Assembly: GCA_038503065.1 (NCBI GenBank)
Contig: JBCAMK010000011.1
Coordinates: forward strand, 1,364,001 to 1,428,000
Length of the DNA stretch: 64,000 bases
Direction of reading: 5' to 3'
Source: Paragyromitra xinjiangensis
Taxonomy: Eukaryota; Ascomycota; Pezizomycetes; Pezizales; Discinaceae
Position 1 is the first letter of the stretch. Each line of letters begins with the position of its first letter. Both the position numbers and the translations under genes were made by a program. The notes below the pieces were generated by a model. It was not told the origin of the DNA. It saw only the letters and a list, made by a program, of their open reading frames with translations, and did no database searches. Shown in pieces: positions 34,955-55,005 of the stretch.

Positions 34955-35434
34955 TACTTACCCTCCCGAAATGTATCAAAAGTATTTAGCGTGGCAAACG
35001 GAGGTTCTCGGACCTCCATTGTGTGGAACCCTAACCCTAGAAGCTAAATGTAACAGGTACGCCGTTACTGCCTCTAGTGTTTTAGTGTTTTAGTGTTTTT
35101 ATTCTACGGCCCTAATACTAAAGTATATCGCCTCATCCCCCGTCATACTACATATTTCCTCCCCGAAAAAAAAAAAAAATACAAACATACTAACTTCCAA
35201 TCAAAACTAAAAATGTAAAAGAAAACATAAATCAAAGAAAATTCCCGACCAAGTTTCTTACTATGACACGCTATTTTTATAATTCAAGTTTTTCGATAAA
35301 AGAAAAAAATTCTGACAAATTTAACCGAGATGAAAAGAAAAGATTCCAATCTATGTTGGAGTCTTTGAAGAATTCCTGGCGCTCGACTGTTCGTAATTTG
35401 CAAAGCATAATGCGATGATGAGATGAATCAACAT

Positions 35435-37715
35435 CAGCAAAACCGATTCTTGGCTCCCGGGCGCTCCTGGACCCTCATGGATGGCGCGGACCAGATGGAG
35501 GCAAGTGCCAGTCCATGGAACAGCCATATCCCAAGGACCCTTGCACACGGTTCCCGGACCACACACCACTTCTCACGGACCCTCGTGGACCTCCCTGGAC
35601 CACCTACCATAGATGGCGGACCTTCCTGGAGCTCTATCAATTCCTGTGGACCACACTGTCGCTTGTAGGTCGCTTGTAGGCCGCTTATAGGGCAGCTGTA
35701 GGGCGCCAATAATACTACTACTAGGGGTACACGAATGCACATGATTATTGGTATCAATTCGGCTACGTATATTGAAAAGCTACACTATAGGATCTCTATG
35801 TACAAAATCAAGCAGTCGCCACTAGAGGCAAACCCCCCCCTGCACTAAACCCACCTGTGCCTAAATCAATTGTTTGGTCTGCTATTCAGCAGTTGTTTTA
35901 GGCGCTGGCACGCAGTCGATTCGGAGTCTATTCAGCAGTCAATTGAGCAGTCAATTCGGCAGGATTCGGAGGCTTAGTAACGGCCGATTCAGAGTCAATT
36001 CAGCAGTCAATTCCGCAGGATTCGGAGGCTTAGAAACAGCTGATTCGGAGTCTATTCGGGAGCCTATTCAGCAGTCAATTCAGCAGTCAATTCGGCAGGA
36101 TTCAGAGTCTATTCAGGAGCCTATTCCGCAGTCAATTCGGAGTCTATTCAGGAGTCAATTCAGCAGGATTCGGAGGCTTAGAAACAGCCGATTCGGAGTC
36201 TATTCGGAGTCTATTCAGCAGTGGATTCGGAGGCTCAGAAACAGCCGATTCGGAGTCAATTCGGGAGTCGATTCGGAGTCTATTCAGGAGTCTATTCATC
36301 AGTCAATTCAGCAGTCAATTCAGCAGGATTCGGAGTCTATTCGGGAGCCTATTCAGCAGTCAATTCGGAGCCTATTCGGGAGTCGATTCGGAGTCTATTG
36401 AGCAGTCAATTCAGCAGTCAATTCAGCAGGATTCGGAGGCTTAGAAACAGCCGATTCGGAGTCTATTCAGCAGTCAATTCAGCAGTGGATTCGGAGGCTC
36501 AGAAACAGCCAATTCGGAGTCAATTCGGGAGTCAATTCGGAGTCTATTCAGGAGTCAATTCAGCAGTCAATTCAGCAGGATTTGGAGTCTATTCAGGAGC
36601 CTATTCAGCAGTCAATTCGGAGCCTATTCGGGAGTTGATTCGGAGTCTATTGAGCAGTCAATTCAGCAGTCAATTCAGCGGGATTCGGAGGCTTAGAAAC
36701 AGCCGATTCAGAGTCTATTCGGCAGTCAATTCAGTAGTGGATTTGGAGGCTCAGAAACAGCCAATTCGGAGTCAATTCGGGAGTCAATTCGGAGTCCATT
36801 CAGAAGTCAATTCAGCAGTCAATTTGGAGCCTATTCGGGAGTCAATTCGGAGTCTATTGAGCAGCCAATTCGGAGTCTATTCAGGAGTCAATTCAGGAGT
36901 CAATTCGGAGGCTTAGAAACAGCCGATTCGGAGGCTGCTCGGGAGGCTCTCACACAGTCGATTCAGCAGGCTGTGGAAGTGAGCGAGGTCTGCTGCTGAA
37001 GGGGTCTGCGGCTGAAAGGGTCCAACCAAGCGAGGTCCGATGTAATAGGGTCCTATGTCTGCTGTCAACGATGTCTGAATGTATGTGGGATGTGGGAACT
37101 GAAGTCACGATGTTAGCAAAGTTCATGTAACTGCAAAGTAGGGAGGGAATGGCAATAGGGGGTGTGGGTGGGTGTGAATGGGTGGGAGTTGGAGAATAGG
37201 GGTAAGGTGGCAACGGTAGGGTACGGGTGGCAGTGAAAGGCGTTCACCAAAAATTCGCTAAGTCCCTAAGGTCAGGGTTATTGATTGTCGCTTGCAAGCG
37301 AGGTCTGAGTCCTGCGATCTCCTGTCAGCGGGGTGCGCAATTCGGGGGTCTAATAGAGGGCAGGTACGTGCCTCAGGGCGCTGGTGGAGTGGGGGTACGC
37401 ACTTCAGTGGTATCCAGAGAGCACCATGGACCTAGAAAAGCGAACCCTGATTGGCACCGGAGATGGGTATGAAACTCCAGAGAGGACCACGGACCGTGAA
37501 GCTGAGCTCCAGGAGCTCCAGGAAGGTCCATGGCCATGCAAGCGAGGTCCATGGGGTGTGCTGGAGCACAGTCCTTCATTCCTGCAGGTACCAGGGTGCG
37601 CCACAACACGGGTGGTTGATCCAGTTGCGCTCAGGACCCTCCCACACCAACACTCAGACATCCTGGAAGATGCGAGACCTGGAAGTGCAAGCCTGGATCA
37701 GAATCAGTTTTGCTG
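35435..37715. mobile_element. Non-autonomous DNA transposon, copy 1, with CAGCAAAA ends and a 12-bp repeat array
   Basis: It begins CAGCAAAACCGATTCTTGGC and ends with the reverse complement CAGCAAAACTGATTCTGATC, so the terminal inverted repeats are about 16 bp with one mismatch. AT lies on both sides (35433-35434 and 37716-37717). Removing the 2,281 bp plus one AT restores the LINE-1 ORF2 frame exactly, which fixes the ends and supports a 2-bp AT duplication. Subterminal regions are dense in GGACC/GGTCC motifs. The centre is a ~1 kb array of a 12-bp motif. No transposase is encoded. Copy 2 (48231-50556) is highly similar throughout. Confidence 0.88.
35910..36970 (+). repeat. 12-bp-motif tandem array in copy 1
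   Basis: The array is built of variants of a 12-bp unit, (G/C)AGTC(A/T)ATTC(A/G)G. It is interspersed with CAGGATTCGGAG and a longer GCTTAGAAACAGCCGATTCG block. Because the period is a multiple of three, long stop-free frames arise, encoding monotonous Gln/Ser/Ile or Val/Tyr/Ser repeats. These are by-products of the array and not convincing proteins. Confidence 0.9.
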
Positions 37716-40700
37716 ATGAAGTTCCCCACATTTGCAGTATTTGGGATCGGTGAACGTGGTGGGATCAATGTGATGTAGATGGTTTCGTATTCGCATGAGT
37801 TTAGAGCAGCGTTTGCGTGATAGGTGTGCTAGGTGCTTTGGGATCTTCAGAGCGGTGGGATAAATGGATTTCATTGACCATTGTTGAAGAAGGTGTTTGC
37901 GCGGAAGGAGTGAGAGATGTCCTAGCGTGAGGCGTTGCCATGAGCAGGGAGATTTGTTGTGGGCTAGTGTGGCGAGGCGATCAGCTTCCTTGTTGCCGGG
38001 AATTTTGGTGTGCGATGGTGTCCAAATGCCTCGTATGGTGCATCCAATATCAGTGAGGGTTTTGCAGGCGTTGAGGGCGTGCCATAAATGTTCCTTGTTT
38101 TGCGTGGGTCCTCCGAATAGGGCGCATAGTGCATTTTGGTTGTCCACGCAGAGATAAATGTCTGCGGGGAAGATGATGTTTTGTAACAGTAGGGTGAGGG
38201 CTTTTTGTATGGCGTGGATTTCTGCATCTTCGTTTTCAGCATGGAAGCCGAAGGCACATGAATGTTGAAAGGTTTGTGTGGGAATGCCATGTCTGATGTG
38301 AATGATGTGTGCTGCTGCGGAAGTGTGCTCATCTTCTCGCTGGGAGCCGTCAGAGTAAAGTAACCATGCGTCGTTGAGAGAGCCTATCCAGGAATTATGT
38401 TGTTGGGCGGTGGCTTCTTTGGAGAGCGTGGAGATAATGAGTTGTTGTGCAGGTAGGTGGGGGCTTTGAAATGGGAAATTTAATCGTTCAAGTGGTAAGT
38501 TGCTTGTAAGGTTGTGAAGTAGGGACGCAATTCTTTTGAGGCCTGTGCCCTTGTATTTGGTGGTTTGTGGTAATAATTGTAGAAGTGGAAGAAAGGCTGG
38601 ATTTTTGGCGTTGCTTTTGAGTATGCGGATGGCGTACTTCTGGGAGTGATAATCGAGGAGTAAATTTAATGGCAGGAGGGCTGCTTCACGTAGAAGATCT
38701 GATATGTGGGTGTGTTTGGGAAGCCCTGTGATGAGGCGGGCAAGGTTATTATAGGAGGGTTGAATGTTTCTGAGGATGGTGGGTGTTCCCGTCCACCATA
38801 TGGGGGAACCCCAGAGCATTTTGGGTATGTGTATTAATTGTATTATGTGATGAATGTTGGCGGGTGTGAGGTGGATGGAGTGAAGGAGAGGATAGATGGT
38901 TCCTCTTGCTTTCAAGAGGGAGGCTGTGATGTGATCGGTGTGTTTATGAAAGTTGATTCTTTGGTCGATGGTGAGGCCCAGCACTGTGCTGTGTTTGGTT
39001 GGTAGGATTTGTTGGCCATAGAGGGTGATGGGTATGGGTAGCGGGTCTTTGATTCTGGATGGTAATCTTAGATGCATGAGTTCGGTTTTGGGGGGGGAAA
39101 AAGTAATGTTTAGCAGTGAGCCTCGTTCGATTTTTAGGTTGAGGCGTTGTTGAAGTGTTATAGTGGTGAATTTTTGTGAAAAGCTCGCTTGGAGCATAGC
39201 GTTGTCATCGATGTAGGTGTTGGAGCGCGTTAGGTTAGAGGCGGTAGGTTCAATGTCTAGGGCTGCACTGTAAATTGTAAAGGCGATGGAGGAAATTGGT
39301 GAGCCTTGGGGGAGGCCGCTGTGAAAGGGGAATGTAGAGCTAGTAGTATTATTGAAGCGGAAGGAAATGGTTCTATTTGCTGTGAAGCTAAGATACCATT
39401 TGATGAGGTACGCTGGGAATTCGTAGTGTGTGAGGATATTTGCCATTTGTTTGTGTATAACACAATTGAAGGCTCCTTCTATGTCTGTGGTGAGAAGGGA
39501 TGGTCGGAGTTGTTTTTGATGTCCAGTCGTGGCGGGAGTATCTAGCCATTGTTGTGCTGGGGTGATGATTTGTTGTAGCGCATCGATGGCAGAAATGCCT
39601 GTGCGCCCTCCTGTATGCTGTTGGTTTATTGTGCCTGAATTGATTGCTGCTATTTCAAGTTGTTTTGTGACTAGGCGTTCGAGTAATTTGCCTAGGCATG
39701 AGAGGAGTGAAATCGGGCGGTAGGAATTGGGCTTGGAGTAATCGCCTTTGCCTGCCTTTGGGATTGGTGTGATGATGGCTTGTTTTCAGATGTCAGGAAA
39801 GATGCCGAATTTTAATGCTGCGGTGAATATTTTTGGAATGAGGAGGGGGGAGGCCTGATGGGCTCTAGAGATGTGAGGGTAGAGTATGCCATCTGCGCCG
39901 GGGGAGGATACCGGTGAGGTTTTGGCGAGGAGTTTGGAAATGAGGTGTGGGGTGATTAGCAGTGTGGTATGGGATTGTTTTAAGATGGGAGGAGGAAGCC
40001 AGTTATTAGGTAGCTCTTGTGAAGTATTTGTAACTGGTGGGAAGAAGGTTGAATGAAAGAGGTTGCATTGTGCGTTAAAGTCTGATGCATTTAAGAGAGG
40101 TTGTACGATTGTGGGGGGCCGTCTGCCATTTGTTTGTTTGATGGCTTGCCATATTTGTTTTGGGTCATTTGAGGAAAGGCGTTGGTGCCAAAGGTGTTTC
40201 TTGGCTTCCAAGATTTCGTTTTTCCATTGTTTTCTTAAGTTTTTGAGGGTGTGTTTGATGTGTGGTGGATGAGGGAAGTGCGTCAGTCTATTGACTGCGT
40301 TTATTTTCTTTTTGAGTTGTGAAAGTTTGTTAGTCCACCAGCCTTTTGATTTGCTGTTGGGCTTAGAAAGAGGGATGGCTGAGGTGACTGCTTGTTGTAT
40401 GAGGGATGAAAGAAGTTGACATTCGCGCGTGGCTTCGGCTTCATTGATTGGGACTGAGTGGTTAAGTGGTGATTGTGTTATGATCTGGTTGAAGAGGATC
40501 CAGTTTGCTTTGTGCAGTGATCGTTTTGGGGTGGCTGTGGGTGTGGGTGGTATGAAGAGTGTGGTGGTAAGGAGAGTGTGATCTGAGCAGTCTCTGAGGT
40601 CTTGGTCTGCGTGCCATGCTATGAAGTATTGTTGCAGATTTCTGAGGAGTGAAAGGTCGATGACAGAGGGTTTGTGGCCATTTCTGGGGAAGTGTGTGAG

Positions 40701-41247: not shown

Positions 41248-42683
41248 TTAATCATGTTGTTGGTTTGATTTTTGAGCGCATTGTGCTAGATATAGGGCTC
41301 TTGTTTTGAGTTTTTCTGGGCAATCGATGGCAGTGTGTTGGTTGGTGTTGCAGCAGGCGCATCTGAGTGGCATATGTGTGCATCTGGTGCCTCCTTTGCA
41401 GGTGATTTGGTCACATCTGTGGTCTTTGGTGTGGTGTGCAAGTGCGCATATGGCGCAGGCGACTTCATGTTTGCAGGTGGCATCGTGATGTCCAAGCTTT
41501 TGGCAGTTGCGGCATTGTGTCGTTGGATTGATGGGGTGGTATTCGCGGATTTTGCAGGTGGCGTTGAGGATGTTGAGATAGGTGAAGCCAAGGGTTTTAA
41601 GAGTGTGTCTCACTGGTAGTGCAATGACGATGGAGGAAGCTTTCTTGCCAATGCGTTTTTCGTCTGTTGATAGCCATCTTGGGGCTTGGGCTAGTTGGAC
41701 GTTGGGGAGGGCGTCTTGTAGGGCGTTGGTGATTGTTGTGGGCGTAACGGGTTCGAGGTTGAAGTTGAGGGGGACGGCGTCGATGATAAATTTGGACCAT
41801 CTGCTGTTGACCCTGATGTTGGTGATGGGGATTTTGAGTAGGTTGCAGGCTGAGGTGATTTCGTGTTCATATTGTTCGATGAACTTGTCTGCGGCTTCGT
41901 TTGGTCTGGTGGTGAGGATGATGTTGTTGTTGTTTGTTTTGCGTGCGGCTAGGATGCTCGTGTTGACCGAGCCGAGTCTATTGTTGATGGCGTTGAGGAT
42001 GGAATCTGGGGTGGCCGAGGCAGGGAGGGGTTCTGTGAGCTCAATTATGATTTCCCTTTTGTCGGTTGTGAAGTCGGGTTTGTACAGTGGTTGGATCTTG
42101 GGTGTTTTTTTATTTGTGACGGTGGTGAAGTTGCTTTTGCCAGGTGCAGCTGAGGCTTTGTTGGCGTATGTTTCTTGTGGTTTGTGGCTGGTGGTTGTGA
42201 CTGGGTTTTTGTTGGTGTTTTGCGTGGTATTTTGGTTTGGAGCGGGAGGGTTGGGCTTGTTGTTTTGGCTGGTTTGGATGTGAAGTAGTCTGGCGTCTAA
42301 GGATCGGACTGTGTTTTGTAGCGAAATGTTCTGTGCTTTGATTTCGGCGAGTTTGGAGGTGGTATTTGTGTTTTGGATGTTGTTGAATTTGATTTGGGCT
42401 TGGAGGCTGTCCATTTGCCTTTCGAATTCATCTTTTATGGTGTTAAACTGGGTTGGTATGAACCAGGCGAGGTAGTTGGTGGAGGTGGCATTGGACATGT
42501 TTGCCATTTCCTCAGCAGGGATTTGAGTGAAGTTGAGGTTGGAATTATATTCCTGGCCTCCAACGCTTTCATTATCATCGTGTTCGCTGGAGGTGCTGCT
42601 GTGGTTGGAGGTGGGTTTGCTTCCATTGGGAGGTCTGTGGGGTCAAAGGCGGAGAGGGCGGTGCTGCCTTCTAATGCAGACAT
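41248..42683 (-). pseudogene. LINE-1 ORF1 (gag-like, zinc-knuckle protein) with an apparent N-terminal frameshift
   Basis: The frame from a Met at 42507 to TAA at 41248-41250 encodes 419 residues. After an Asn/Thr/Pro-rich middle it ends in knuckles CRNCQKLGHHDATC, then CAICALAHHTKDH and CACCNTNQHTAIDC, as in ORF1 proteins of fungal Tad-like LINEs that bind the element RNA. Protein-like sequence continues upstream of 42507 in this frame (NESVGGQEYNSNLNFTQIPA) until about 42640. There a different frame carries a better start, MSALEGSTALSAFDPTDLP at 42683. One base appears to be missing near 42625-42640, so I call the ORF broken. An alternative is a true start at 42507. It overlaps ORF2 by 8 nt (ATGATTAA), suggesting termination-reinitiation. 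Confidence 0.7.
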
Positions 42684-42859
42684 GTTGGAGGTTCGGGTGA
42701 GATGGGGAGAGAGGTGGCTGGAAGTGCGTTTGCGCCCAGCAAGGGGTGTGGGTGTGACGGGTGTCCAAACAAGTTGGACAGGAGTTGCGGGTGGTGATCA
42801 TCAGCAAAAATAATTATCGCCTCCTGGAGTTTGGGCATGTCTCCCCGGGAGGCAATTTT

Positions 42860-42912
42860 CTCCCTGACCTCCATGTGCTCCCTGACCTCCATGTGCTCCC
42901 TGACCTCCTTGA
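42860..42912 (+). repeat. Short tandem repeat, 18-bp unit, left subterminal region of the Plavaka-like element
   Basis: Nearly three units of CTGACCTCCATGTGCTCC in direct order, 60 bp inside the left terminus. CTCC/GGAG motifs continue on both sides. Such subterminal repeats are the usual transposase-binding sites of CACTA-type elements. Confidence 0.85.
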
Positions 42913-43365
42913 GGAGTGGTCGCGCTACTACATCCTCATGGAGGATATACCTAATCCTTTCGACTCCAGCCATCTCCTGGAGGAAATGACTACTCTTCGT
43001 CGCTGCAGTCAACTCGTGGAGCGCCTAACAACTTCTTCATATCTCTAGGAGGATAATGCTTCTCTTTCCCGCAAAGTTTCAGGAGTTTTGCTTAGTAATT
43101 GCAGCCAAGCACGTGGTATCTAGATTTGATTGGCTCTATTCGCTTGATTGATACAGTATTGCCACGTAGGATATTAAGTATCCTACGCCTACTCCCATCC
43201 TTTGCCTACTTCCATCCTTCGCCCACTTCCATCTCTCATCTACTCTATGTTCTCCGAGTCTCTGACTATATACAAGCTCCCACGGTCCCCAATCCTTGAG
43301 GATGCCCTGTCTCCCAATCCACCCATGTTCCCATGTTCCTAGTCCTGCGAGGATACTCAGTATCC

Positions 43366-46300
43366 TCAATTCTCTAAAGTATAGATCTCATTAAACGTTG
43401 TAAGGTCAATTTGGTTGTTGACTAGCCATTTAGTATTATACTCTTGGAGCTCCAGCTGCTCGGGAATGAGATGCGCGATTCCCATGATATTCTTTATCCC
43501 TACAATGAATCGATCATCTGTCAACCTAGTAGATACTCTCACCATCCCATGGATGCCCGTAATCCTCCCTCCACCCGGAGAGGCTCGTAGCATCCTCACA
43601 AGGACTAGTCGATGTGTATACTGTGTATGAGGATCTCGAATCTTAAAAAGGCAAAGCACTTTGGCTGGAAGGCGTCCTCGAAGAGCGCCAAACTGGCCCT
43701 CGTCTCCTACCTGGACCCACACCCAATCGTTTCGTGGAGCCTGACCCCTAAACGCTCGCTCCCCTGTGCATCTCACACGATGAAGCTCAAACTCCTCAGG
43801 TTGCTGGAACTTTGGCACAGGGACTCGAAGGTGAGAGAACATCTCAGCTGGGTATGTAAGAAGAGCCTCTGTATCCTCCTCAAGACGACGCTCATCCTTC
43901 AAATTCTGACTGCTGTAATATAGTATTCGTTCTGGTAGATCCGGGATATTCATTTGGGAGATGATGTCATACAGAAGGGAAACCTTCGCCTGTCGACCAC
44001 ACAATCGCCGGAGGGATGCCCTTTCTCCTGTATGTTGGACCTTCGATCGTCTGGGTTTAAGGATATCGTGCAGCTGCGAATTGGGAGGCTCGGCATCCCC
44101 ATAATTGGGAGGCTCAGCATCCCTAAAAGGGCCCGGAGGTTCAATATACGCATACCCAATGCTTGTCGACGTGCGTAGTAGTGCGGGATTTGCTTCGTCC
44201 AATCGTTTTGTTGGATGCCCTATATCCTTCTTTGATCTGCTGCCGATGTGCCGTCTCCCCAACCTCAGTAGAAAACATGGGGATCCCTCCATACCGCTCA
44301 ACGTGCTCATGGAAGTGCGTTAAGAGGTGCATCTTTGGAAAGTTGAAGTGGCTTTCTTCCTGCTGCGTTTCAACGAGTAGCTCCCTCCTCTCAAGCCTAT
44401 CTGCATCCTTCAATTGTCTTTTTTTGGATCCTGTAGGAGGAGGCCTGGCATCCTGCGATAGCTTCAAGCGTTTGACTGTTGCGCGTGCCTTTGCGCTTGC
44501 CTTCTTGGAAGCTCTGAATTCTATGAAGATATCTTTATGCTTGTGGAAGTCGGCCAGATACTGGTCCATATATCGCAAGGTTTCAGGTGTATGGCTCCGA
44601 TACTGTGCCATAAGGTGGAAATCGATAAAACTCCGCACGCAAAGGATAGCTCGCTTGAAAGGATATAGCTCATCCTTCGAAGGATTGAGCAGCGCAACTG
44701 CAAAAGCCCCGAGAAGGATACGGCCGAGATTGCACATCTCCTTGCCCTGCCACTGGGAAACCTCTCGATAGGCTTTAGTTGGCCTAGCCAGGCCTGGGAA
44801 GAGGGGTATCGACATCCAGACTTCGTCAAATGCCTGCTGCCTCTTGTGCTTCTCGAGGAAGCTCTCTATCCACTCCATCAAATGCTTCAATATACCGAGA
44901 TATATATTATGCAGGAGGTCTGGCTTGTGGAGGTCTCCAGTGCGAGGGAGATGTGGCATCCCCCAAAAGACGTTGAATGGCGCTTTCAGCCCTCGTTCAG
45001 CAAGATATTCCAATTCCTGAGGATCCCCAGTATCGGCAAAGGATTGAGCCACTTTCTGATACTCCTTGTCGTTTCGCTTTGGGCTGCTGACGAGCTCACC
45101 AAGTTGGTCTGGCTTGACTTCGCACTTTGGGCAAGCGTTTTGCTCTAGGTTGTGGAGTTGGCAATGCTCTGCGTGGTCAGCCATCCAAGCACAAAGGATT
45201 GGATAGCACATTCGGTACTGAGCATCCGCACATGCTAATCGGATTCCAGTCATCCCAGCCTCTTTCATATCCTTGAAAAGGATGCTGAGGACCTCGTATA
45301 GTATATCTCTATTGGCTTCTCGGCGGAGCCTATTGGTTGAATTGTCTTTGGTAAACTTTGGAGGGATCGGGAGGAGTGCCACAAGAATCATAGCCATATT
45401 CGTTGGCTTATTTCGAACTTCGGAAGGGATATTCCCTATCGTCAAGTAGATTGGCCAAGCCTTCTTATCACCTGAGAAATTGGTGAGATGTGTGCCATCC
45501 AAGCCGCAGATGACTGGAATCACCGTGGCTCCGTGAGGTAAGCTTTCCTAGCCACGAGAATTAGCAGAATAATAAATATTTGGGAGCAAATAGCTAACCT
45601 GTACTTCCCACCACCAGTCTGCTGTATGGAGCTCAGAATACATCCTCTCTCCGCTGTTGTTGTATTCTCGAACTGGAAGATAGACCATATCCTCGGCATA
45701 TGCTGGCTGTTTGAGCAAATATTGGATACAGGCCGGTATTGGCCTGAAGTAATACCACGTCACTCTCTTCCTCATCCCTTCCATGACTTCACAACTCCCT
45801 CGCTGCCAGTGCGCTTGGCCTAAATCCGGATCTATCCTATCGAGGAGTCTGTACATCGTATGGGCAGACCTAAATCCTGGCGTAGGAGTGCAGAGCCCCT
45901 TGTTGAAATACTCGTTGATACGGGTTTTTGCTATTCCACTCTCTATTATCCACCTAGCGAGCTTGAAGTCAAAAGCCGTCTCAAATGGAGTGTATGGGTT
46001 TGAGAGGAGGAACTCCACAACCTCCTGATGATCCTCCACATCCCCCAAAGAGCACGCTGCATTGGTATATTGAATTATCCTTGGGCTAGATAGCTGGATG
46101 GGTCCTGTACCATTATTCGCGTCGTCATCCTCCGTATCAGATGGTGAAGGATTCTCATTATCCTCCTCATTTCCACCTACAGTGCTCCCATTTGATGACC
46201 CACCTCCAGAGCATATGTCTTCCCAATCACTGTCTGGATTCTGTCGGCGCCATGAACCAACTCCTGAGCCATCCTCCTCATCCTCTTCGGATTGAGTGCC

Positions 46301-46432
46301 TCCTTGGCCAAATACCAGTGCGATGGAGGCATACTTAGGGTGGATAGCCATCATATGAGCATGCAACGACAGAGCTGAGCTGTAAGTGCGGCGGCACAAT
46401 GGGCAGCGGGATCTTGGAGCCTCCGAATCCAT
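43366..46432 (-). pseudogene. Plavaka-family transposase with N-terminal C2H2 zinc finger, with two apparent frame breaks
   Basis: The ATG at 46432 opens MDSEAPRSRCPLCRRTYSSA, a C2H2 finger (C-x2-C ... H-x-H-x4-H), then an acidic Ser/Gly linker and the transposase N-terminal region (FKLARWIIESGIAKTRINEY). An intron joins WWEVQ to ESLPHGATVIPVICGLDGTH, giving the hallmark LDGTHLTNFSGDKKAWPIYL with TIGNIPSEVRNKP, then CPKCEVKP, HKPDLLHNIYLGILKHLMEW and FPKMHLLTHFHEHVERYG. After GYRASNK the sense passes to another frame (NDWTKQIPHYYARRQAL), as if one A were missing in a short A run near 44195. Past about 44060-44130 it moves to a third frame, which carries the typical C-terminus (VRCTGERAFRGQ, NDWVWVQ, GALRGRLPAKVLCLFKIRD, HRLVLVRMLR, WLVNNQIDLTTFNEIY) and stops at 43366. 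One break could be an unrecognised intron. Expected role: transposition of this element. Confidence 0.85.
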
Positions 46433-47171
46433 ATCAACTTGAAGGATACTGTGTATCGGCTGTGGAGCAAGATGCTAGGGGTGGGATGCTGGAGCTCGTT
46501 TCAAGTTGGGAGTAGAATGCACCCTCCGGGTTGATTCTGGTCCTGGAAGGAAGTATGATATCAATACTCGCTAAGAGAAATTAGGATGCTGACACTCGCT
46601 GATAGAAAATAGGATATTTGCTCACTAATGGGAGGATGCAGACAGGAGCTTGCGCGGAAACGGAATGTTGCCCCGTGGAGGATTTGCTGCGATCACTGGA
46701 AATCAGCCTCGGGGATGCTAATGCCAAGGAGAAGTAGGATGCTGAGAGGGGGTAGGATACTGGAAGGGAGTAGGATGCTGTAACTCGCTGAAGTGGAGTG
46801 ATATTGGTCGCTAGAGTAGGATTCTGCTGCTTGCAAAGGTAGGAAGCTCTTGCTGCTGCTCGTTGGAGTTCAGGGGGTGTTGATATGAAGTTGAAATATG
46901 GGAGCAGGCTAATCCCAAAATAGGAGGTGTAGGCGTCGCTTAGTGGTTTCAAGGTGGGTTAGGGTTGGCCTGCGCACAGATCCTATCAATACCTCACATA
47001 TGACCTCATAAACGCTGCCAGGGCAAACAAATCCTGCTTCTCCTCCTCTTCAGCTTCCTCTTCAGCTTCCTCCTCGCTCTCCTCCATCCTCTGCAACCTT
47101 CTCTCCTAGCTTGCCTAAGCTCGCGATACCATATATCCTTCCTAAACCAACTTGATATTACTATTTCAAGA
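46433..47171. promoter_or_regulatory. Divergent intergenic region inside the Plavaka-like element
   Basis: This 739-bp spacer separates the transposase start (-) from the unknown Lys/Pro-rich gene (+) and must contain both promoters. It is packed with (A/G)GGATGCTG, AGGATACT and ACTCGCTGA-like motifs, recurring roughly every 30-60 bp between 46440 and 46800. The same GGAT(A/G)C word recurs through the rest of the element. Confidence 0.5.
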
Positions 47172-48230
47172 TGTCCAATATCCTCAAATCGGCAGTAGAC
47201 TCCGCGGGGAAAACTCAGCAGTGGGCGGTGAGCAAACTCCATAGCGCAGGGCATCTTGATACGTTGATGCTAATACAAATAGGCGGTGAATAACTCCAGT
47301 AAATCGAATCCAGAACCAGGACCAAGTGCTATTCAGAATCCTGCGAAAGATACAGAGACTCCCTCGAAAGAACGAAAACGCCCGTCCAGTAGCGACGGCT
47401 ATCAACTCAGAAAGTTTGCCCACCTCTCCGCAGCTCCTTCATCTCCTTCATCTCCTTCATCTCCTACTCCTCGCACTCGGAGGACTGATATCGCAACTCC
47501 CCCCCCAACTCAAGCTTGGGGCCTCTTTTTGGACCAGGTACTTATACCATTCAAGGATACACAGTCTCCTTCTCTCCCCATGGCTGCTCTAGATAAAGGT
47601 AAAGGCAAAGCTAAGGAACCATCGGAGGATCCGGAAACCCCAAAGGATACGGAGACTCCGAAGAAAGACCCAAAAGCTCCGGAGGAGCTTGAAACTCCAA
47701 AAAAGCCCGAAACGCCGAAGAAAGTGGTAATAAAGGGAAAAGCGCCAAAGAAGGAAACACCAAAAAAAAAACTCATGAAGGCCACTGACTATAAGCCACT
47801 CCTTGGGTTTAGAGAGGATAATCCTCATCATTATACCGTCCTTCGGAGTGATGTTGTATCCTATTTGAGGATGCATGGTATCCGAGGCATCGCTAATCCT
47901 ACCGCAGAGGCATGGGCATCATTAACAGAATGGGCTACAGGGCATCATTCTATTGTGACCTACCGCCCGAGGCATACAGAGGATAAAGAGCAGGTAGATC
48001 AGGCGATGCAGAGTCTCCTTCGGGATTGCCTGCATCAGGTGCAGCAGACGGATACTGGTATGATCGAGAGAGAAAAGGATGTGGAAGGTAAGATTTTGTT
48101 TATGGCCCTCTATTTGTTTGACTGAAGGATGCTTACTATCGTGCGGGTGATTTAGAATTCAAAGAAGTCCCAGTCCGAGTGACGCTCTGTGACCCGGATG
48201 CCTGGTGGAGGGTTTCCACCAAGGAGACAT

Positions 48231-50556
48231 CAGCAAAACCGATTCTCAGCTCCCGGGCACTCCCGGACCCTCATGGATGGCGCGGACCAGATGGAGGCAA
48301 GTGCCAGTCCATGGAACAGCCATATCCCAAGGACCCTTGCACACGGTTCCCGGACCACACACCACTTCTCACGGACCCTCGTGGACCTCCCTGGACCACC
48401 TACCATAGATGGCGGACCTTCCTGGAGCTCTATCAATTCCTGTGGACCACACTGTTACTTGTAGGTCGCTTATAGGGCGGCTGTAGGGTGCCAATAATAC
48501 TACTAGGGGTACACGAATGTACATGATTATTGGTATCAATTCGGCAACGTATATTGAAAAGCTACACTATAGGATCTCTATGTACAAAATCAAGCAGTCG
48601 CCACTAGAGGCAAACCCCCCCCCCCCGCACTAAACCCACCTGTGCCTAAATCAATTGTTTGGTCTGCTATTCAGCAGTTGTTTTAGGCGCTGGCACGCAG
48701 TCGATTCGGAGTCTATTCAGGAGTCTATTCAGCAGTCAATTCAGCAGGATTCGGAGGCTTAGAAACGGCCGATTCAGAGTCAATTCGGCAGTCAATTCAG
48801 CAGGATTCGGAGGCTTAGAAATAGCTGATTTGGAGTCTATTCGGGAGCCTATTCAGCAGTCAATTCAGCAGTCAATTCGGAGCCTATTCAGGAGCCTATT
48901 TGGGAGTCGATTCAGAGTCTATTGAGCAGTCAATTCAGCAGTCAATTCAGCGGGATTCGGAGGCTTAGAAACGGCCGATTCGGAGTCTATTCAGCAGGAT
49001 TCGGAGGCTTAGAAACAGCCGATTCGGAGTCTATTCGGAGTCTATTCAGCAGTCAATTCGGAGCCTATTCAGGAGCCTATTCAGCAGTCAATTCGAGGCC
49101 TATTCGGGAGTCGATTCGGAGTCTATTGAGCAGTCAATTCAGCAGTCAATTCAGCAGTGGATTCGGAGTCAATTCGGGAGTCAATTCGGAGTCTATTCAG
49201 GAGTCTATTCAGGAGTCTATTCAGGAGTCAATCCAGCAGTCAATTCAGCAGGATTCGGAGTCTATTCGGGAGTCTATTCAGCAGTCAATTCAGCGGGATT
49301 CGGAGGCTCAGAAACAGCCGATTCGGAGTTGATTCGGAGTTGATTCAGCAGTCAATTCAGCAGTCAATTCGGAGTCTATTCAGGAGCCTATTCAGCAGCC
49401 AATTCGGCAGTCAATTTGGCAGGATTCGGAGGCTTAGAAACAGCCGATTCGGAGTCAATTCGGGAGTCAATTCGGAGTCTATTCAGGAGCCTATTCCACA
49501 GTCAATTCGGAGTCTATTCGGGAGTCTATTCGGCAGTGGTTCGGGCGTCGATTCGGAGTCAATTCAGCAGGATTCGGAGGCTTAGAAACGGCCAATTCGG
49601 AGCCTATTCAGCAGTCAATTCGGAGCCTATTCGGGAGTCGATTCGGAGTCTATTGAGCAGTCAATTCAGCAGTCAATTCAGCAGTCAATTTGGAGGCTTA
49701 GAGACAGCCAATTCAGAGGCTGCTCAGGAGGCTCTCAGGCAGTCGATTCAGCAGGCTGTGGAAGCGAGCAAGGTCTGCTGCTGAAGGGGTCTGCTGCTGA
49801 GGGTCCGACCAAACGAGGTCCGATGTAATAGGGTCCGATGTCGATATCCGAATGTATTTGAGATGTGAGAACTGAAGTCACGATGTTAGCAAAGTTCATG
49901 TAACTGCACAGTAGGAAGGGCAATAGGGGGTGTGGATGGGTGTGGATGGGAGGGAGTAAGAGAAAAGGGGTAACGTGGCAACGGTATGGGTGGCAGCAAA
50001 AGACTTTCGCTAAAAATTTGCCAAGTCCCTAGGGTCAGGGTTATTGACTCGCTTGCATGCAAGATCCTGCGATCTCCTGTCAGTGGAGTGCACAATTTGG
50101 GACCCTAATAGAGGGCAGGTACGTGCTTCAGGGTACTGGTGGAGGGAAGGTACGCGCTTCAGGGTACTGGTGGAGGGCAGGTACGCGCTTCAGCAGTACC
50201 CAGATCGGTACTGGGGAAAGGTACACGGCTCCAGAGAGCACCATGGACCTAGAAAAGCGAACCCTAATCGGTACTGGGGGGAGATATGCAACTCCAGAGA
50301 GCTCCATGGACCGTGCAGCTCAGCTCCAGGAAGCTCCAGGACGGTCCATGGGCTTGTAGGCGAGGTCCACAGCATGTACTGGAGCACAGTCCTTCCGTCC
50401 TGTAGCAACCAAAATAGGCCAGAAGACGGGTGGCTGATCCAGTTGCGCTCAGGACTCTCCCACACCAAGGCTCAGACCTCCTGGAGCACGCAGGACCTAG
50501 AAGCTGGAGCACGCAGGACCTAGAAGCGGAAGCCAGGATCAGAATCAGTTTTGCTG
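48231..50556. mobile_element. Non-autonomous DNA transposon, copy 2, nested in the Plavaka-like element
   Basis: It starts CAGCAAAACCGATTCTCAGC and ends with the inverted complement CAGCAAAACTGATTCTGATC. AT flanks it at 48229-48230 and 50557-50558. At 2,326 bp it is close in length to copy 1 (2,281 bp) and highly similar in the left GGACC-rich arm, the 12-bp array and the right arm. It splits a coding exon of the host transposon, and excision with one AT restores that frame. Confidence 0.9.
48698..49745 (+). repeat. 12-bp-motif tandem array in copy 2
   Basis: Same 12-bp unit family as the array in copy 1, but with a different order and number of unit variants. The two arrays have therefore rearranged internally since the copies separated. 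Stop-free frames inside it are by-products. Confidence 0.9.
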
Positions 50557-51546
50557 ATGGACTCGTTATCCCTGGGAAGCACCGGCTGGGGTCAATTGGG
50601 GTTTAGTCAAGTCTTGGGTTGCCAGAATTAGTGCTCCTACCCTCAACGAGTGCCTTCGCGTAGCCACGAGGCAATTACCTGCGGGCCGTACTCCTCGAAG
50701 GATGCTAGGAGCCCTTGTGGATGCTGTTCCTGAAGAGGTTTCTGCGACTTACCCAATCTCTACTATTCTTGCCGATGATGAGGATGTTGCTGGCTGGCTG
50801 GCTCAGATACAGGGTCTAACCGCTCCGAGGATGCTGGTCATCCTTCATCGGGCCCCATACGATGGTCCGGGCCCTAAAGGGGAGCCTGCGGAGGAGTATG
50901 ATGGTTCAGATACGCCACCTGCGTCAGGGGACCCTGATTATTTTACGGCTGAAGCGCTTGCTGAAGCCTTGCTTGCGTTGAAGGGAGTGGAGGATAAGGG
51001 GAAAGCGAAGGATAAAGGGAAAGCGAAGGATAAGGGTAAGGGTAAAGCGAAGGGTAAGGGGAAAGCGAAGGATACGGAGGAAGTGGGTGATGATGATGAT
51101 GATGAGCAAGCAGGCCCTGCTTGAACGATTGGTATACTCCCTTCTGATGGCTATTACTAGATCAGCAAATGCTTATAATATGGAACAGGAAAACGAAAGG
51201 TAGGGATATTGGGATTAGGGGCATTGGTTATTAGGATTGGTATTGGGATTAGGGGCACTTGATGGAGATTACCGCGAGGATGCAGGGCATCCTTTGATAT
51301 TTGCTATCCGTGTATTTTTATTTTTTTATTTTTGGGAGGTCGAAGCGCTGCGTCAGTAGTATTATGTTAGGGCTAGAGTTAATTCAAATATGTCTTAGAG
51401 ATCAGACCGCACTCCTTATAAGCATCACCCCCAGAGGTCCTGAGGATTCTCTCTCTCCTCCATACGCTCTTCTCTCTCCTCCATACGATCTTCTCTCTTG
51501 TACGATATCACCTACCCCTTCCAAATCATATATTCTCCATCCAAGG

Positions 51547-53487
51547 ATGACAGCCATCTGCAAGAGAAACCTCGAAGCAGCAAAACGAATGCCACCACCC
51601 CCTCGCCCCTCCGAAACAAGAAGGAGAAGGCGTATCGTGGATCCGGAAGCTGAGCCCCTCAATTATAGTCGATGTGGCAGAGAAAGAGAAAGAGGACTGG
51701 CATCGCAGGAGGAGGAGGCGGAGGAGGAGGAGGAGGAGGAGGAAGAGGAGGAGGAAGCCGAGGAGGAGGCTGAGGAGGAAGTAGATGAAGAAAATTCAGC
51801 GGACGAAGACTTCTATGAGGATGAGCAAGCTCCCCCCCCAAGTCAGAACCGGACCAAAAGACCACAGACGAAGATACAGGCTGCTGCGTCTGAAATGGCT
51901 CGTAATGCTATCTATCGAGGGCAGGCTCGCTTGGTAGGAACTCCTGAGGATAATGCAAATCCTAAATTATCGAGAGCTTTTCTAACTGATATAGCGTGTC
52001 CCCGAACCCCTTGAGCAGGCGCCAGCTCAGCGAGCTAGGCCAGGCCGCCCTCCGGCAACTCCCGCCAATTCTCCGAATCGTAGCAGTGGAAGGTCTGTAT
52101 CTCCCAGGGGCGATGCAGAGAGTCGTAGTGGAGGTGACCTCCATAGAAGGAGTAGCAGAAGCGTATATTTGTTGGGAGAGCCTTTCCGTGCCTTGGTCCA
52201 TGCATCTCAGGAGGATATCCTGCAGAAGACCCTGTTTTGTGAGCCCCTGCCATCTGCTGAGACGTTGCTCAAGTGGATACGTACTGCTTGGGCGAAGGCT
52301 TCGGAGGATATGGAGCGTCAGGCTCCTCTGGAGGCAGCTTGTTCTCGTCAGGTAATCACTCCCAACCCACGGACTACTACCCACAGCTGGTCAGATTTGC
52401 TTGCCTTAGAGAGCTTGGAACTGACGACAGAAAACATTTGGCAGGTAATTACCCCTTTCCTGAAGGATACTGCATATCCTCACATGAGATATAGATTAGC
52501 CAGCAACACTGCCGCGTGCGCTCTCACCTCGTCAGTGCAGCCAAGGTGAGCATTATCCAGCTCTATGAGCTGGATGAGCATTATCCTGAGATTATTAGAA
52601 ACAAAGTGGAGTATTTGCTAGTCAAGGACAGGTTTATGTGCCTTGAATCTACCATGGCGGTATGTCGAATTCGGGAGCAATAGGAGTAGGAAGCTGACCA
52701 TCCTACTAGGATTTTAAGAATTGCTTTCTAAATGATACGATTGCTAAGCTCATCTTCCTCAAGTATTATAGGGGGAGGAGGATGAGGGGACGCTCCAATG
52801 CTGCGTTTAGCTCCTTAATCAATAAGGAGTTCGTTTGCTTTGTCACAGCAGTGCTCCAGTACAATTTGAAAGCCTGGAGGACTGGCATGTATGTGGAGCC
52901 TGCAGACTTCACTAGGGAGACCTGTTATCGTACTGCTGCCCCCCCTTTCCACTCCTATATCTTTCCGAGACCTAGGATGACTGACATCCTTTATAGCGGT
53001 CTGGCGCAGACACTGCAGCATGTGGGATACCATAGCACTCAAAGCTCCTGAATGGGAAGTGGAAGTTCTGCATGCGATTCGGTACGAGGTAGAGAGAAAG
53101 GTTGCCAGGGTGACTAGGAGGCCTGTGGACGAGTCGGCCACTCCTTGGAGCGATGATGACGATGACGACGATCATATGGGTGAGTTACTGAGTCGCAAGC
53201 GGAAACGGGACTTCGAAAGAGTAGGCTATCAAGGTACTCGAAACAAAGCCAGGCGAAACGGTTCGGAGTCTCCTCATCCTGAGGATAAGGAGCAGGCACC
53301 GGGGCCTGTCAATATTCCTACCCTTCTCTTAGAGCAAGAAATCGAGAATGAGATCGAAACTGAAGTTGATACCCCTCCTCCAACTCCTGCAGCCAATACT
53401 GGTCCTCCGACTACTAATGATATGCAGGTCGACCTTTCTGGGGCTGTGGCAAGCTTCGAGCGGGAAAGGGAGGCTGTGTATCTTTGA
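51547..53487 (+). CDS. DUF6532-like protein gene carried by the Plavaka-like element
   Basis: The ATG at 51547 gives MTAICKRNLEAAKRMPPPPR, followed by Arg-rich and very acidic (Glu-run) low-complexity sequence. An intron (GTAGGA...GATATAG) joins QARL to RVPEPLEQAPAQ and an Arg/Ser stretch. The folded part then begins (YLLGEPFRALVHASQEDILQ, SAETLLKWIRTAWAKASEDM, LVRFACLRELGTDDRKHLA, YPEIIRNKVEYLLVKDRFMC). After an intron (GTATGT...ACTAG) it continues with DFKNCFLNDTIAKLIFLKYY, EFVCFVTAVLQYNLKAWRTG and MYVEPADFTRETCYRTA. The helical pattern with an AVLQYNLKAW-x-TG segment resembles the fungal DUF6532 family. A charged tail with a DDDDDDD run ends at 53487. The junctions near 52440-52560 and 52930-53030 are unclear, so the gene may be slightly damaged. 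Function is unknown; its position inside the transposon marks it as a companion gene. Confidence 0.65.
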
Positions 53488-53499
53488 GGGGATGTTTGG

Positions 53500-53820
53500 A
53501 GCTATGGAGGATACACTGCATCTTTCTCTTCGTTCGTTATTCGTCTGTCTTTTCGTTAGTCCTGAGGATACACCGCCTCTTTCCCTTTGTCTGTTTTTTT
53601 GTCTGTCGTTTAGTTAGTCTTGGGGGCTGTGGAGGATACACTGCATCTTTTCTTTCGTTGGTCGTTGGTCGTTGGTTTTGGGTCGTGGAGGATACACTGC
53701 ATCGTTTCTTTGGTCCGTTTTTTAGTCTGTCTTTTGGTTAGCGTTAGGAGCTTAGGAGGATACACTTCATCTTTTGTTTGGTTGGTCTCAATTTGCGGAG
53801 GATTATCTATATCGTATTTT
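53500..53820 (+). repeat. Degenerate tandem repeat, about 60-bp unit, around GGAGGATACACTGCATCTTT
   Basis: Five or six units between 53500 and 53820 start with (G)GAGGATACAC(T/C)GCATC and continue with T/C-rich CTTTCGTTSGT-like sequence. The core word GGAGGATAC also occurs elsewhere in the element. The array lies between the last gene and the right terminus. Confidence 0.8.
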
Positions 53821-54039
53821 GGTAGATTCTCGCTATAATAGTAATTTTAATCCGTATATGCTCTATTCCACAAGTCCGAGTGATATCATGTGAATAGCTT
53901 TAAACTCGGTCTGAAGCAAGGCTCCTGGGCGAGAATATGGCACGCCCTAATGAATATGGAGAGTTCAGGAGGATTCAGGATATCTCGGGGAGGGATAAAT
54001 GCCACGGTATGGAGTAGTAAAGTAAAGGACATCGACTCC

Positions 54040-54290
54040 CTGAGAGGAAGCTCGATAACGTGCATTCCTTGGAGAAAATGGTCATGCCTCTACGCTCCTT
54101 GGGAGGATGCGGAATGTCGCATACTTCAGGGAGGTCGAAGCCGCGCTGCTGCTCTCCATGGGAAGATGCTCGATATCGCATACTTCATGGAGAAGGTAGT
54201 TGTGCCTCCGCACTCCCAGGGAGGAAGCTCGATATCGTACACTCCATGAAGAAAGCAGCAATGCGACTGCTCTCCCCAGGAGATTGAGTA
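54040..54290 (+). repeat. Degenerate tandem repeat, about 60-bp unit, right subterminal region
   Basis: Four or five units carry a GGAAGCTCGATATCG-like core, CATACTTCATGGAGAA and a CTCC(C)AGGGAGGA linker. GGAG/CTCC-rich sequence continues up to the right terminus at 54498, matching the CTCC/GGAG-rich left end. Probably transposase-binding subterminal repeats. Confidence 0.75.
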
Positions 54291-54500
54291 ATTACTTGCG
54301 CATTATGGAGGCGCCCGGAGGAGCCTCAGCGTCTCCAGGGAGACTCGTGGAGTGGGCGGCGTGGGCTCCCGGAGTCTCCAGGAGGATGAGGAGTATCCAC
54401 CGCTCCTCCAGGTAGGCACATAAACTCCTGGAGTCTCCCGAGTCTCCTGACGATCCCGAGCCTCCTGGAGCTGAGGGAGGAAATAATTATTTTTGCTGAT

Positions 54501-55005
54501 GCACCAGTGCCCTGAAGCACGTACCTGCCCTCTATTAGACTCCCAAATTGCGCACCCCACTGACAGGAGATTGCAGGACCTCGCTTGCAAGTGACAATCA
54601 ATAACCCTAACCTTAGGGACTTAGCAAATTTTTGGCGAAGGTCTTTTGCTGCTACCCATACCGTTGCCCGTCACCCCTATTCTCCTACTCCCACCCCCAT
54701 CCACACCTATCCACACCCATCCACACCCATCCACACCCCCTATTGCCCTTCCTCCCTTCTGTGCAGTTACATGAACTTTGCTAACATCGTGACTTCAGTA
54801 CTCACATCCCACGGACATTGTTGACAGCAGACATAGGACCCTATTACGTCGGACCTTGCTTGGTTGGACCCTCAGCAGCAGACCCCTTCAGCAGCAGACC
54901 TCGCTCGCTTCCACAGCCTGCTGAATTGACTGCTCAATAGACTCCGAATCGACTCCCGAATAGACTCCCGAATTGGCTGTTTCTAAGCCTCCAAATCCTG
55001 CTGAA
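54501..55005 (-). mobile_element. Truncated third copy of the 12-bp-array element, inverted
   Basis: Read on the minus strand, this matches the right-central part of copies 1 and 2. In order it has a short end of the 12-bp array (CAATTCAGCA, GAGTCGATTCGG), GCTGTGGAAGCGAG, CTGAAGGGGTCTGCTGCTGA, the CACGATGTTAGCAAAG segment, the GGGTGTGGATGGGTG repeats, and CTAATAGAGGGCAGGTACGT. It ends abruptly where the Plavaka-like element begins. Most of the array and both terminal inverted repeats are missing. Confidence 0.85.

What the first reader, a model, noticed from the sequence alone, without database searches (positions are those of the whole stretch)
42802..54498. A multigene Plavaka-like transposon with two companion genes and exact 16-bp ends
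Identical inverted ends (CAGCAAAAATAATTAT) bracket a Plavaka-family transposase fused to a C2H2 finger plus two other protein genes on the opposite strand, one unknown and one DUF6532-like. Companion genes in this superfamily can be accessory factors that bind or demethylate subterminal repeats, as TnpA/TnpB-type pairs do in plant CACTA elements. A fixed association of an unknown protein and a DUF6532-like protein with Plavaka would be a little-described system. The element borders and gene positions are seen in the sequence; the functional link is inference.
Basis: partly seen in the sequence, partly recalled or inferred. Interest (0 to 1): 0.88.

Follow-up and report, generated by a model that had tools for sequence, protein, structure and literature searches.

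The report
Three-gene fungal transposon with conserved helpers
A jumping gene in what looks like a mushroom-type fungal genome carries, beside its cutting enzyme, two other genes that recur in the same order across distant relatives in that genome, which suggests they are working parts of the jumping machinery and gives a first context to a protein family of unknown function.

Summary
The element is window 42799-54501; its ends are 19 bp (CATCAGCAAAAATAATTAT), the mark of PlavakaB. The window copy is dead: its transposase frame is broken, gene A is split by a nested 2,332-bp Plavaka-type insertion, and the outer target duplication is missing. Only the DUF6532 gene (B) is whole. All 7 of 7 full-length copies, in two subfamilies, carry A and B. 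Genome-wide, 62 of 68 A loci lie within 8 kb of a divergent Plavaka transposase, against 3-5 in other orientations. Of 96 transposase loci, 52 have both A and B (B within 10 kb) and 20 show no companion. Transposase, A and B are under purifying selection (dN/dS 0.15-0.30). A has a confidently modelled helical N-domain and, less surely, a PB1/ubiquitin-like C-domain. A second, very divergent Plavaka lineage has DUF6532 too (9 of 12 loci), with an unknown protein and a SNF2-type helicase in place of A. Palindrome arrays fill both ends and are kept by non-autonomous relatives. I read this as a three-protein transposition system that works like CACTA TNPD/TNPA. The association is shown in one genome; the mechanism is inferred.

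The parts
42799..54501 (.). PlavakaB element, whole; no target duplication in this copy
42799..42817 (+). left terminal inverted repeat CATCAGCAAAAATAATTAT
54483..54501 (-). right terminal inverted repeat
42799..43098 (.). left subterminal array: 7 CTCC(N0-3)GGAG palindromes (1 mismatch allowed) in 300 bp; 60 shuffles mean 0.8, max 2
53902..54501 (.). right subterminal array: 20 palindromes in 600 bp; 60 shuffles mean 2.2, max 7
45599..46432 (-). transposase exon 1 (predicted), with the weak N-terminal C2H2-like finger (about 46340-46408)
43366..45547 (-). transposase exon 2 (Plavaka domain); reading frame broken in the C-terminal part in this copy
47171..48227 (+). gene A, first part (predicted exons 47171-47227, 47283-48087, 48156-48227); helical domain
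48228..50559 (.). nested non-autonomous Plavaka-type insertion (2332 bp, TSD GA) that splits gene A
50560..51124 (+). gene A, rest of the last exon (most of the PB1/ubiquitin-like domain and the charged tail)
51547..53487 (+). gene B, DUF6532 protein, 570 aa, predicted exons 51547-51933, 51995-52444, 52495-52659, 52710-52929, 52997-53487; unbroken here

Best explanation
This is a decayed copy of a three-gene PlavakaB transposon. The transposase is transcribed leftward; gene A and the DUF6532 gene B run rightward from the same central region. Shown by sequence: A and B are standing parts of the element, inherited with the transposase over long evolutionary times. Inferred: the transposase cuts at the CATCA..TGATG ends, while A and/or B bind the palindrome arrays in the terminal 300-600 bp and bring the two ends together. 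In this view A supplies the bridging through its PB1-like domain, as TNPA does for TNPD in CACTA/En-Spm. Non-autonomous relatives that keep only the ends and arrays would be moved in trans. I put the standing association in this genome at about 0.93, and the end-bridging role of A and/or B at about 0.45; the confidence given is a blend, and the rivals on function are not exclusive.
Against: One genome only; no relatives could be searched. 20 of 96 transposase loci show no A, B or SNF2 (15 if B is sought to 16 kb), 10 show A without B, and 21 of 95 B loci have no divergent transposase within 16 kb, though decay and missed exons explain at least some. Loci are partly near-identical copies and not independent. 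The PB1 match rests on a low-confidence whole model (pLDDT 62.9, pTM 0.38) and PB1 Foldseek E-values of 0.13 or worse. The A N-domain matches no solved fold, so DNA binding is not shown. The palindrome was chosen after looking at the ends, and the L030 family lacks it. The transposase's own C2H2 finger could be what reads it. No binding, expression or transposition was measured.
Confidence: 0.6

Rival explanations
1. A and/or B are anti-silencing or expression factors (they bind the element and counter chromatin or methylation silencing) rather than bridging subunits of the transposition complex.
For: The second Plavaka lineage has a SNF2-type helicase on the same strand as DUF6532, and chromatin remodelling is what SNF2 proteins usually do (recalled). 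Some Plavaka families in other fungi carry TET/JBP genes (PMC12730594, passages read). TNPA itself also regulates its element (PMC2613891, passages read).
Against: No TET/JBP match in the element genes or within 72 kb of a listed Plavaka transposase. A has no recognised enzymatic domain. Arrays at both ends are more directly explained by end recognition.
Confidence: 0.3
2. The transposase's own C2H2 finger reads the palindromes, and A/B do something else such as host-factor tethering or target choice.
For: A C2H2-like finger is fused to the transposase in both lineages.
Against: Only one finger is seen, weak in this family, which is little for reading a palindrome array (inference); A is held in position as strictly as the transposase.
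Confidence: 0.2
3. A and B are passengers captured once and carried along without a role.
For: Copies with broken A or B persist: A in the window and L010, B in L010, L012 and L013.
Against: dN/dS 0.24-0.30 for both genes, not far from the transposase, and retention across families with as little as 23% identity in the A C-domain. The transposase is broken in some copies too (window, L012, L013).
Confidence: 0.06
4. The association is an artefact of Plavaka elements nesting in the same genomic clusters as unrelated A and DUF6532 genes.
For: Plavaka loci are clustered on several contigs.
Against: Clustering does not give one orientation and spacing: 62 of 68 A loci are divergent, against 3-5 in other orientations; median A spacing 1.8 kb. 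In L029-L031 A and B lie inside bounded elements with target duplications.
Confidence: 0.02

Closest known systems
PlavakaB DNA transposons (Kojima 2025, PMC12730594, passages and one section read; group named by Iyer et al. 2014, not held, known only through citing papers)
   Same: PF18759 transposase; termini 5'-CATCA..TGATG-3'; 2-bp target duplications.
   Different: The passages I read describe the transposase and, in some families, a TET/JBP gene; a term search of that paper gave no DUF6532 or SNF2. No TET/JBP domain was found in this family.
CACTA/En-Spm TNPD + TNPA (PMC2613891, passages read)
   Same: Transposase plus an element-encoded second protein; repeat arrays in the subterminal regions; non-autonomous copies that keep the ends. 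Plavaka transposases show recognisable similarity to EnSpm transposases (PMC12730594).
   Different: CATCA, not CACTA, ends; accessory proteins encoded as separate divergent genes, not spliced from the transposase transcript; two or more accessories; no sequence relation of A or B to TNPA was tested.
KDZ transposons with CxC2 cysteine-cluster genes in Pleurotus ostreatus (PMC7641404, passages read)
   Same: Fungal transposons whose intact copies were all preceded by a companion-coding region of unknown role.
   Different: Different transposase group (Plavaka shows no similarity to KDZ, PMC12730594) and a different companion.
Nuwa/Harbinger transposase + Myb/SANT protein (PMC12730594, passages read)
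   Same: Two-protein DNA transposon with a separate DNA-binding partner.
   Different: Different transposase superfamily; no Myb/SANT match in A or B.

Membership tests
PlavakaB | Plavaka transposase domain PF18759 | tested here: met
   E 4.2e-58 and 5.9e-16 on the two exons
PlavakaB | termini 5'-CATCA..TGATG-3' | tested here: met
   window, 6 further full copies, and L029-L031
PlavakaB | 2-3 bp target site duplication | tested here: met
   2 bp in 5 of 7 full copies and in 3 of 3 bounded divergent elements; absent in the window copy and L013
PlavakaB | C(2)C and H(3-4)H motifs between catalytic D and E | not tested
   CPKC and HLLTH are visible in the translation, but no alignment to the published figure was made
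TET-positive Plavaka | encodes a TET/JBP dioxygenase | tested here: not met
   no Pfam TET/JBP match in the element genes; 4 genome matches, nearest 72 kb from a listed Plavaka locus; the distant PE type was not tested
CACTA/En-Spm | CACTA-type termini and 3-bp TSD | tested here: not met
   CATCA ends, 2-bp TSD
CACTA/En-Spm (works like) | subterminal repeat arrays as cis sites | tested here: met
   arrays above shuffled controls at both ends, also in 4 of 4 non-autonomous copies examined; their role as cis sites is inferred
CACTA/En-Spm (works like) | element-encoded protein binds the arrays | not testable with these tools
   needs a binding assay
DUF6532 (PF20149) | score over the Pfam cut-off | tested here: met
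   71.1 bits against 24 for gene B of L009
Tri-helical domain (PF24465) | score over the Pfam cut-off | tested here: inconclusive
   10 of 13 A N-domains match at E<=1, best 2.2e-5; first member 16.9 bits, under the cut-off of 27. 11 of 11 genome matches lie beside divergent Plavaka transposases, 6 of them over the cut-off
PB1 domain | PB1 fold and sequence signature | tested here: inconclusive

The most novel reading that the evidence does not exclude
Plavaka transposons run a modular multi-protein transposition complex in which DUF6532 is the common subunit. PlavakaB pairs it with a new two-domain protein (tri-helical-like plus PB1-like). A second, very divergent lineage pairs it with an unknown 448-aa protein and an element-encoded SNF2 remodeller. 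DUF6532, a fungal family of unknown function, would then be at root a transposon accessory protein.
Probability: 0.45. Interest if true: 0.82.

Novelty: new variant of a known kind. Interest (0 to 1): 0.7.

Why it matters
It gives a first context, and testable candidate roles, to DUF6532 and to a second unnamed protein. It would make Plavaka another transposon in its DDE clade with dedicated partner proteins, beside En/Spm with TNPA and RAG transposons with a RAG2-like protein (the latter recalled). Helper proteins with a fixed partner and visible candidate binding sites make the question of why some eukaryotic transposons need accessory proteins directly testable in fungi. Annotators who see DUF6532 genes expand in mushroom genomes should consider transposon copies before host adaptation.

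Tried and rejected

Counts: many loci are near-identical copies, so k of n is not a count of independent events. The independent units are at least six divergent groups: subfamilies I/II with L029, the L030 type, the L031 type, the L032 type, the Tri-helical-only type, and the SNF2 lineage. Loci are hits merged by my own gap rules; the SNF2 and 448-aa hits (30 and 21) were merged by hand to 14 and 15. The tools score only the best candidates, so totals are lower bounds. Dropped before counting: of the 49 exact ends, only inward pairs 9-12 kb apart were taken as full copies (7). Three wider inward pairs (C1 33 kb, C5 17 kb, C19 18 kb) were left out; two of the three (C5, C19) have A and B hits between their ends, the C1 pair none listed. 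One search used 45 of the matches; one search repeated the tally with 150 of its 165 matches (those listed) and gave the same classes, one convergent B locus more. The null was rerun for the enlarged lists (true lengths for 16 contigs, 1.5 Mb for the rest). The pair L009-L010 for A (66 codons, L010 frame broken; dS 2.6, ratio 0.22) is left out of the quoted range; the transposase value 0.22 rests on 458 codons because L012's frame breaks.
Full report
What is there. The window lies in a 48.2-Mb genome of 22 contigs whose name is not given; that it is an agaricomycete is my inference from its transposons and was not tested. All 49 extend by CAT, so the terminal repeat is CATCAGCAAAAATAATTAT and the element is 42799-54501. 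With up to 3 mismatches there are 370 such ends against 10 in the control. Kojima 2025 (PMC12730594; passages and one section read) gives 5'-CATCA..TGATG-3' and 2-3 bp target duplications as the marks of PlavakaB.

Copies. From the 49 exact ends I took inward pairs 9-12 kb apart: 7 full copies (the window, L009-L014). They form two subfamilies, with long aligned blocks 98% or more identical within and 76-91% between; the six other copies are 9.35-9.45 kb long. 5 of 7 have 2-bp target duplications (TG, AA, CA, AA, TT); the window and L013 do not. The window copy is longer because a 2,332-bp insertion with CATCAGCAAAAC ends and a GA duplication sits in gene A (48228-50559); a relative with an AA duplication lies at 35432-37718. 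The window copy's right flank (54502-54966) is an inverted relative of part of that insertion, while its left flank differs. A recombination between two copies would explain the missing duplication; that is inference.

Genes. All splicing is predicted. The transposase is 1005 residues in L009 (two exons) with a Plavaka domain and a weak C2H2 finger. It reads through in L009, L010 and L011, breaks in the window (746 residues), L012 and L013, and my pattern did not resolve L014. Gene B is a 570-residue, five-exon protein with an acidic N-terminal part and a DUF6532 domain at 71.1 bits. It is unbroken in the window, L009 and L014, broken in L010, L012 and L013; in L011 the last acceptor pattern was not found and the gene was not judged. 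Gene A is about 500 residues with a short first exon. Past that exon it is unbroken in L009, L011, L012 and L014, broken in L010, split by the insertion in the window, and not resolved by my pattern in L013, where tblastn finds both parts without stops. All 7 copies carry recognisable A and B. A of L009 matched no Pfam family at E<=1.

Fixed association. Genome searches with PF18759, PF20149 and protein A, merged, gave 96 transposase, 60 A and 82 B loci. Adding PF24465 and the listed protein-B matches gave 68 A and 95 B loci. 62 of 68 A loci lie within 8 kb of a transposase in divergent orientation, against 3 (same strand upstream), 5 (convergent) and 3 (same strand downstream); random placement gives 0.95 (max 4 over 200 runs). 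For B, 63 of 95 lie within 10 kb, against 3, 11 and 8 and a random mean of 1.55; 74 of 95 lie within 16 kb, against 6, 15 and 12 and a random mean of 2.2. Of 96 transposase loci, with B sought to 10 kb, 52 have A and B, 10 A only, 2 B only, 6 B plus a SNF2 helicase, 6 the helicase only, and 20 none; with B sought to 16 kb, 53, 9, 7, 9, 3 and 15. Exon-level searches miss genes: the Pfam search alone missed B in the window, L009, L013 and L014. A sits at a median of 1.8 kb from the transposase domain.

Divergent families. Four more loci were read in full. L029 (401-9689, TSD CA), L030 (162-9476, TSD GA) and L031 (737-9718, TSD TG) are bounded by CATCAG ends (2, 2 and 3 mismatches in 16 between the two ends) and hold transposase (-), A (+), B (+); L032 has the three genes, but its ends were not found. 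Among six families A's C-domain is as little as 23% identical, B's exon 4 32% and the transposase 52%, and the three proteins group the families alike: subfamilies I/II with L029, L030 with L031, L032 apart (rank correlations 0.69 and 0.67 over 15 pairs that are not independent). Between subfamilies I and II dN/dS is 0.15-0.22 for transposase, 0.28-0.30 for A and 0.24 for B exons 3-5 (Nei-Gojobori, two pairs each). This is purifying selection on all three.

A second lineage. At C17:897300-911300 (L044, L045) a transposase 28-32% identical to the others is followed on the opposite strand by an unknown 448-aa frame, a SNF2-type helicase (PF00176 E 1.6e-9, PF00271 E 2.4e-6) and DUF6532 (E 5e-20). 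12 of 14 loci of the helicase and 12 of 15 of the 448-aa protein lie beside divergent Plavaka transposases, the same 12; none of them has a detected A, and 9 of 12 have DUF6532 within 16 kb (6 of 12 within 10 kb). DUF6532 is thus the shared companion, and the slot between is lineage-specific. The ends of this element were not found.

Cis sites. The palindrome CTCC(N0-3)GGAG (one mismatch allowed), chosen after inspecting the ends, occurs 6-7 times in the left 300 bp and 19-20 times in the right 600 bp of 7 of 7 full copies, and 7 and 17 times in L029. For the six elements of this group that were shuffled, means were 0.5-1.0 and 2.2-2.9, maxima 4 and 7. Of three other half-sites of the same composition two give at most 1 and 7; the overlapping CCTC gives up to 6 and 12. 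L031 has fewer (3 and 6; shuffle means 0.5 and 1.4) and L030 is at chance (0 and 2), so the motif is family-specific. Four non-autonomous elements (two in L016 with identical flanks, so three independent; L025; L028; 1.75-2.12 kb, 2-bp TSDs in 4 of 4) share only about 60-140 bp at each end with the full element, yet have 7-8 palindromes in the first and 5-8 in the last 300 bp, against shuffle means of 0.9-1.6; part of these lie in the shared ends. That is what one expects of binding sites needed in cis.

Mechanism. Established for En/Spm: TNPA binds subterminal repeats, TNPD is the putative transposase, and both are needed (PMC2613891, passages read). By analogy I propose that the Plavaka transposase cuts the CATCA ends and that A and/or B load on the arrays and pair the ends, with A's PB1-like domain as the joining surface. 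The arrays, the selection and the recurring gene set are shown; binding, pairing and need are not. The main rival is a role in overcoming silencing, which the SNF2 helicase of the second lineage would suit.

Novelty. Searches of the held library for Plavaka, DUF6532, 'tri-helical domain', the Pfam accessions and combinations gave no paper whose listing or read passages link DUF6532 or A to Plavaka as a companion. Of the 19 papers listed I read passages of five. One lists Plavaka and DUF6532 among additional domains of two Ganoderma genomes, without linking them (PMC8955403). The element is a member of a known superfamily; the conserved accessory set makes it a new variant of a known kind.

Noticed in passing
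35432-37718 and 48228-50559: Two relatives of a non-autonomous Plavaka-type family (ends CATCAGCAAAACCGATTCT, 2.29 and 2.33 kb, TSD AA and GA) with internal repeats; one splits gene A.
   Followed up: partly
L044 1-10000 and L045 1-4001 (C17:897300-911300): A very divergent Plavaka lineage with a SNF2-type helicase, an unknown 448-aa protein and DUF6532 in one divergent array; the helicase recurs beside 12 Plavaka transposases.
   Followed up: partly
L016 133-2023 and 7634-9532: Two non-autonomous copies 7.5 kb apart with the same 30-bp upstream flank and the same TT duplication, suggesting a segmental duplication that includes the insertion.
   Followed up: no
41248-42642: Minus-strand frame with zinc-knuckle-like cysteines directly left of the element, like a LINE ORF1 (recognised from memory).
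   Followed up: no
genome G000, C6:1157158, C15:1341155, C1:3431858, C12:824328: Four TET/JBP matches in the genome (two over the cut-off), the nearest 72 kb from a listed Plavaka transposase.
   Followed up: partly
genome G000, 21 of 95 DUF6532 loci: DUF6532 loci without a divergent Plavaka transposase within 16 kb: decayed copies, missed transposases, or host-adopted genes.
   Followed up: no
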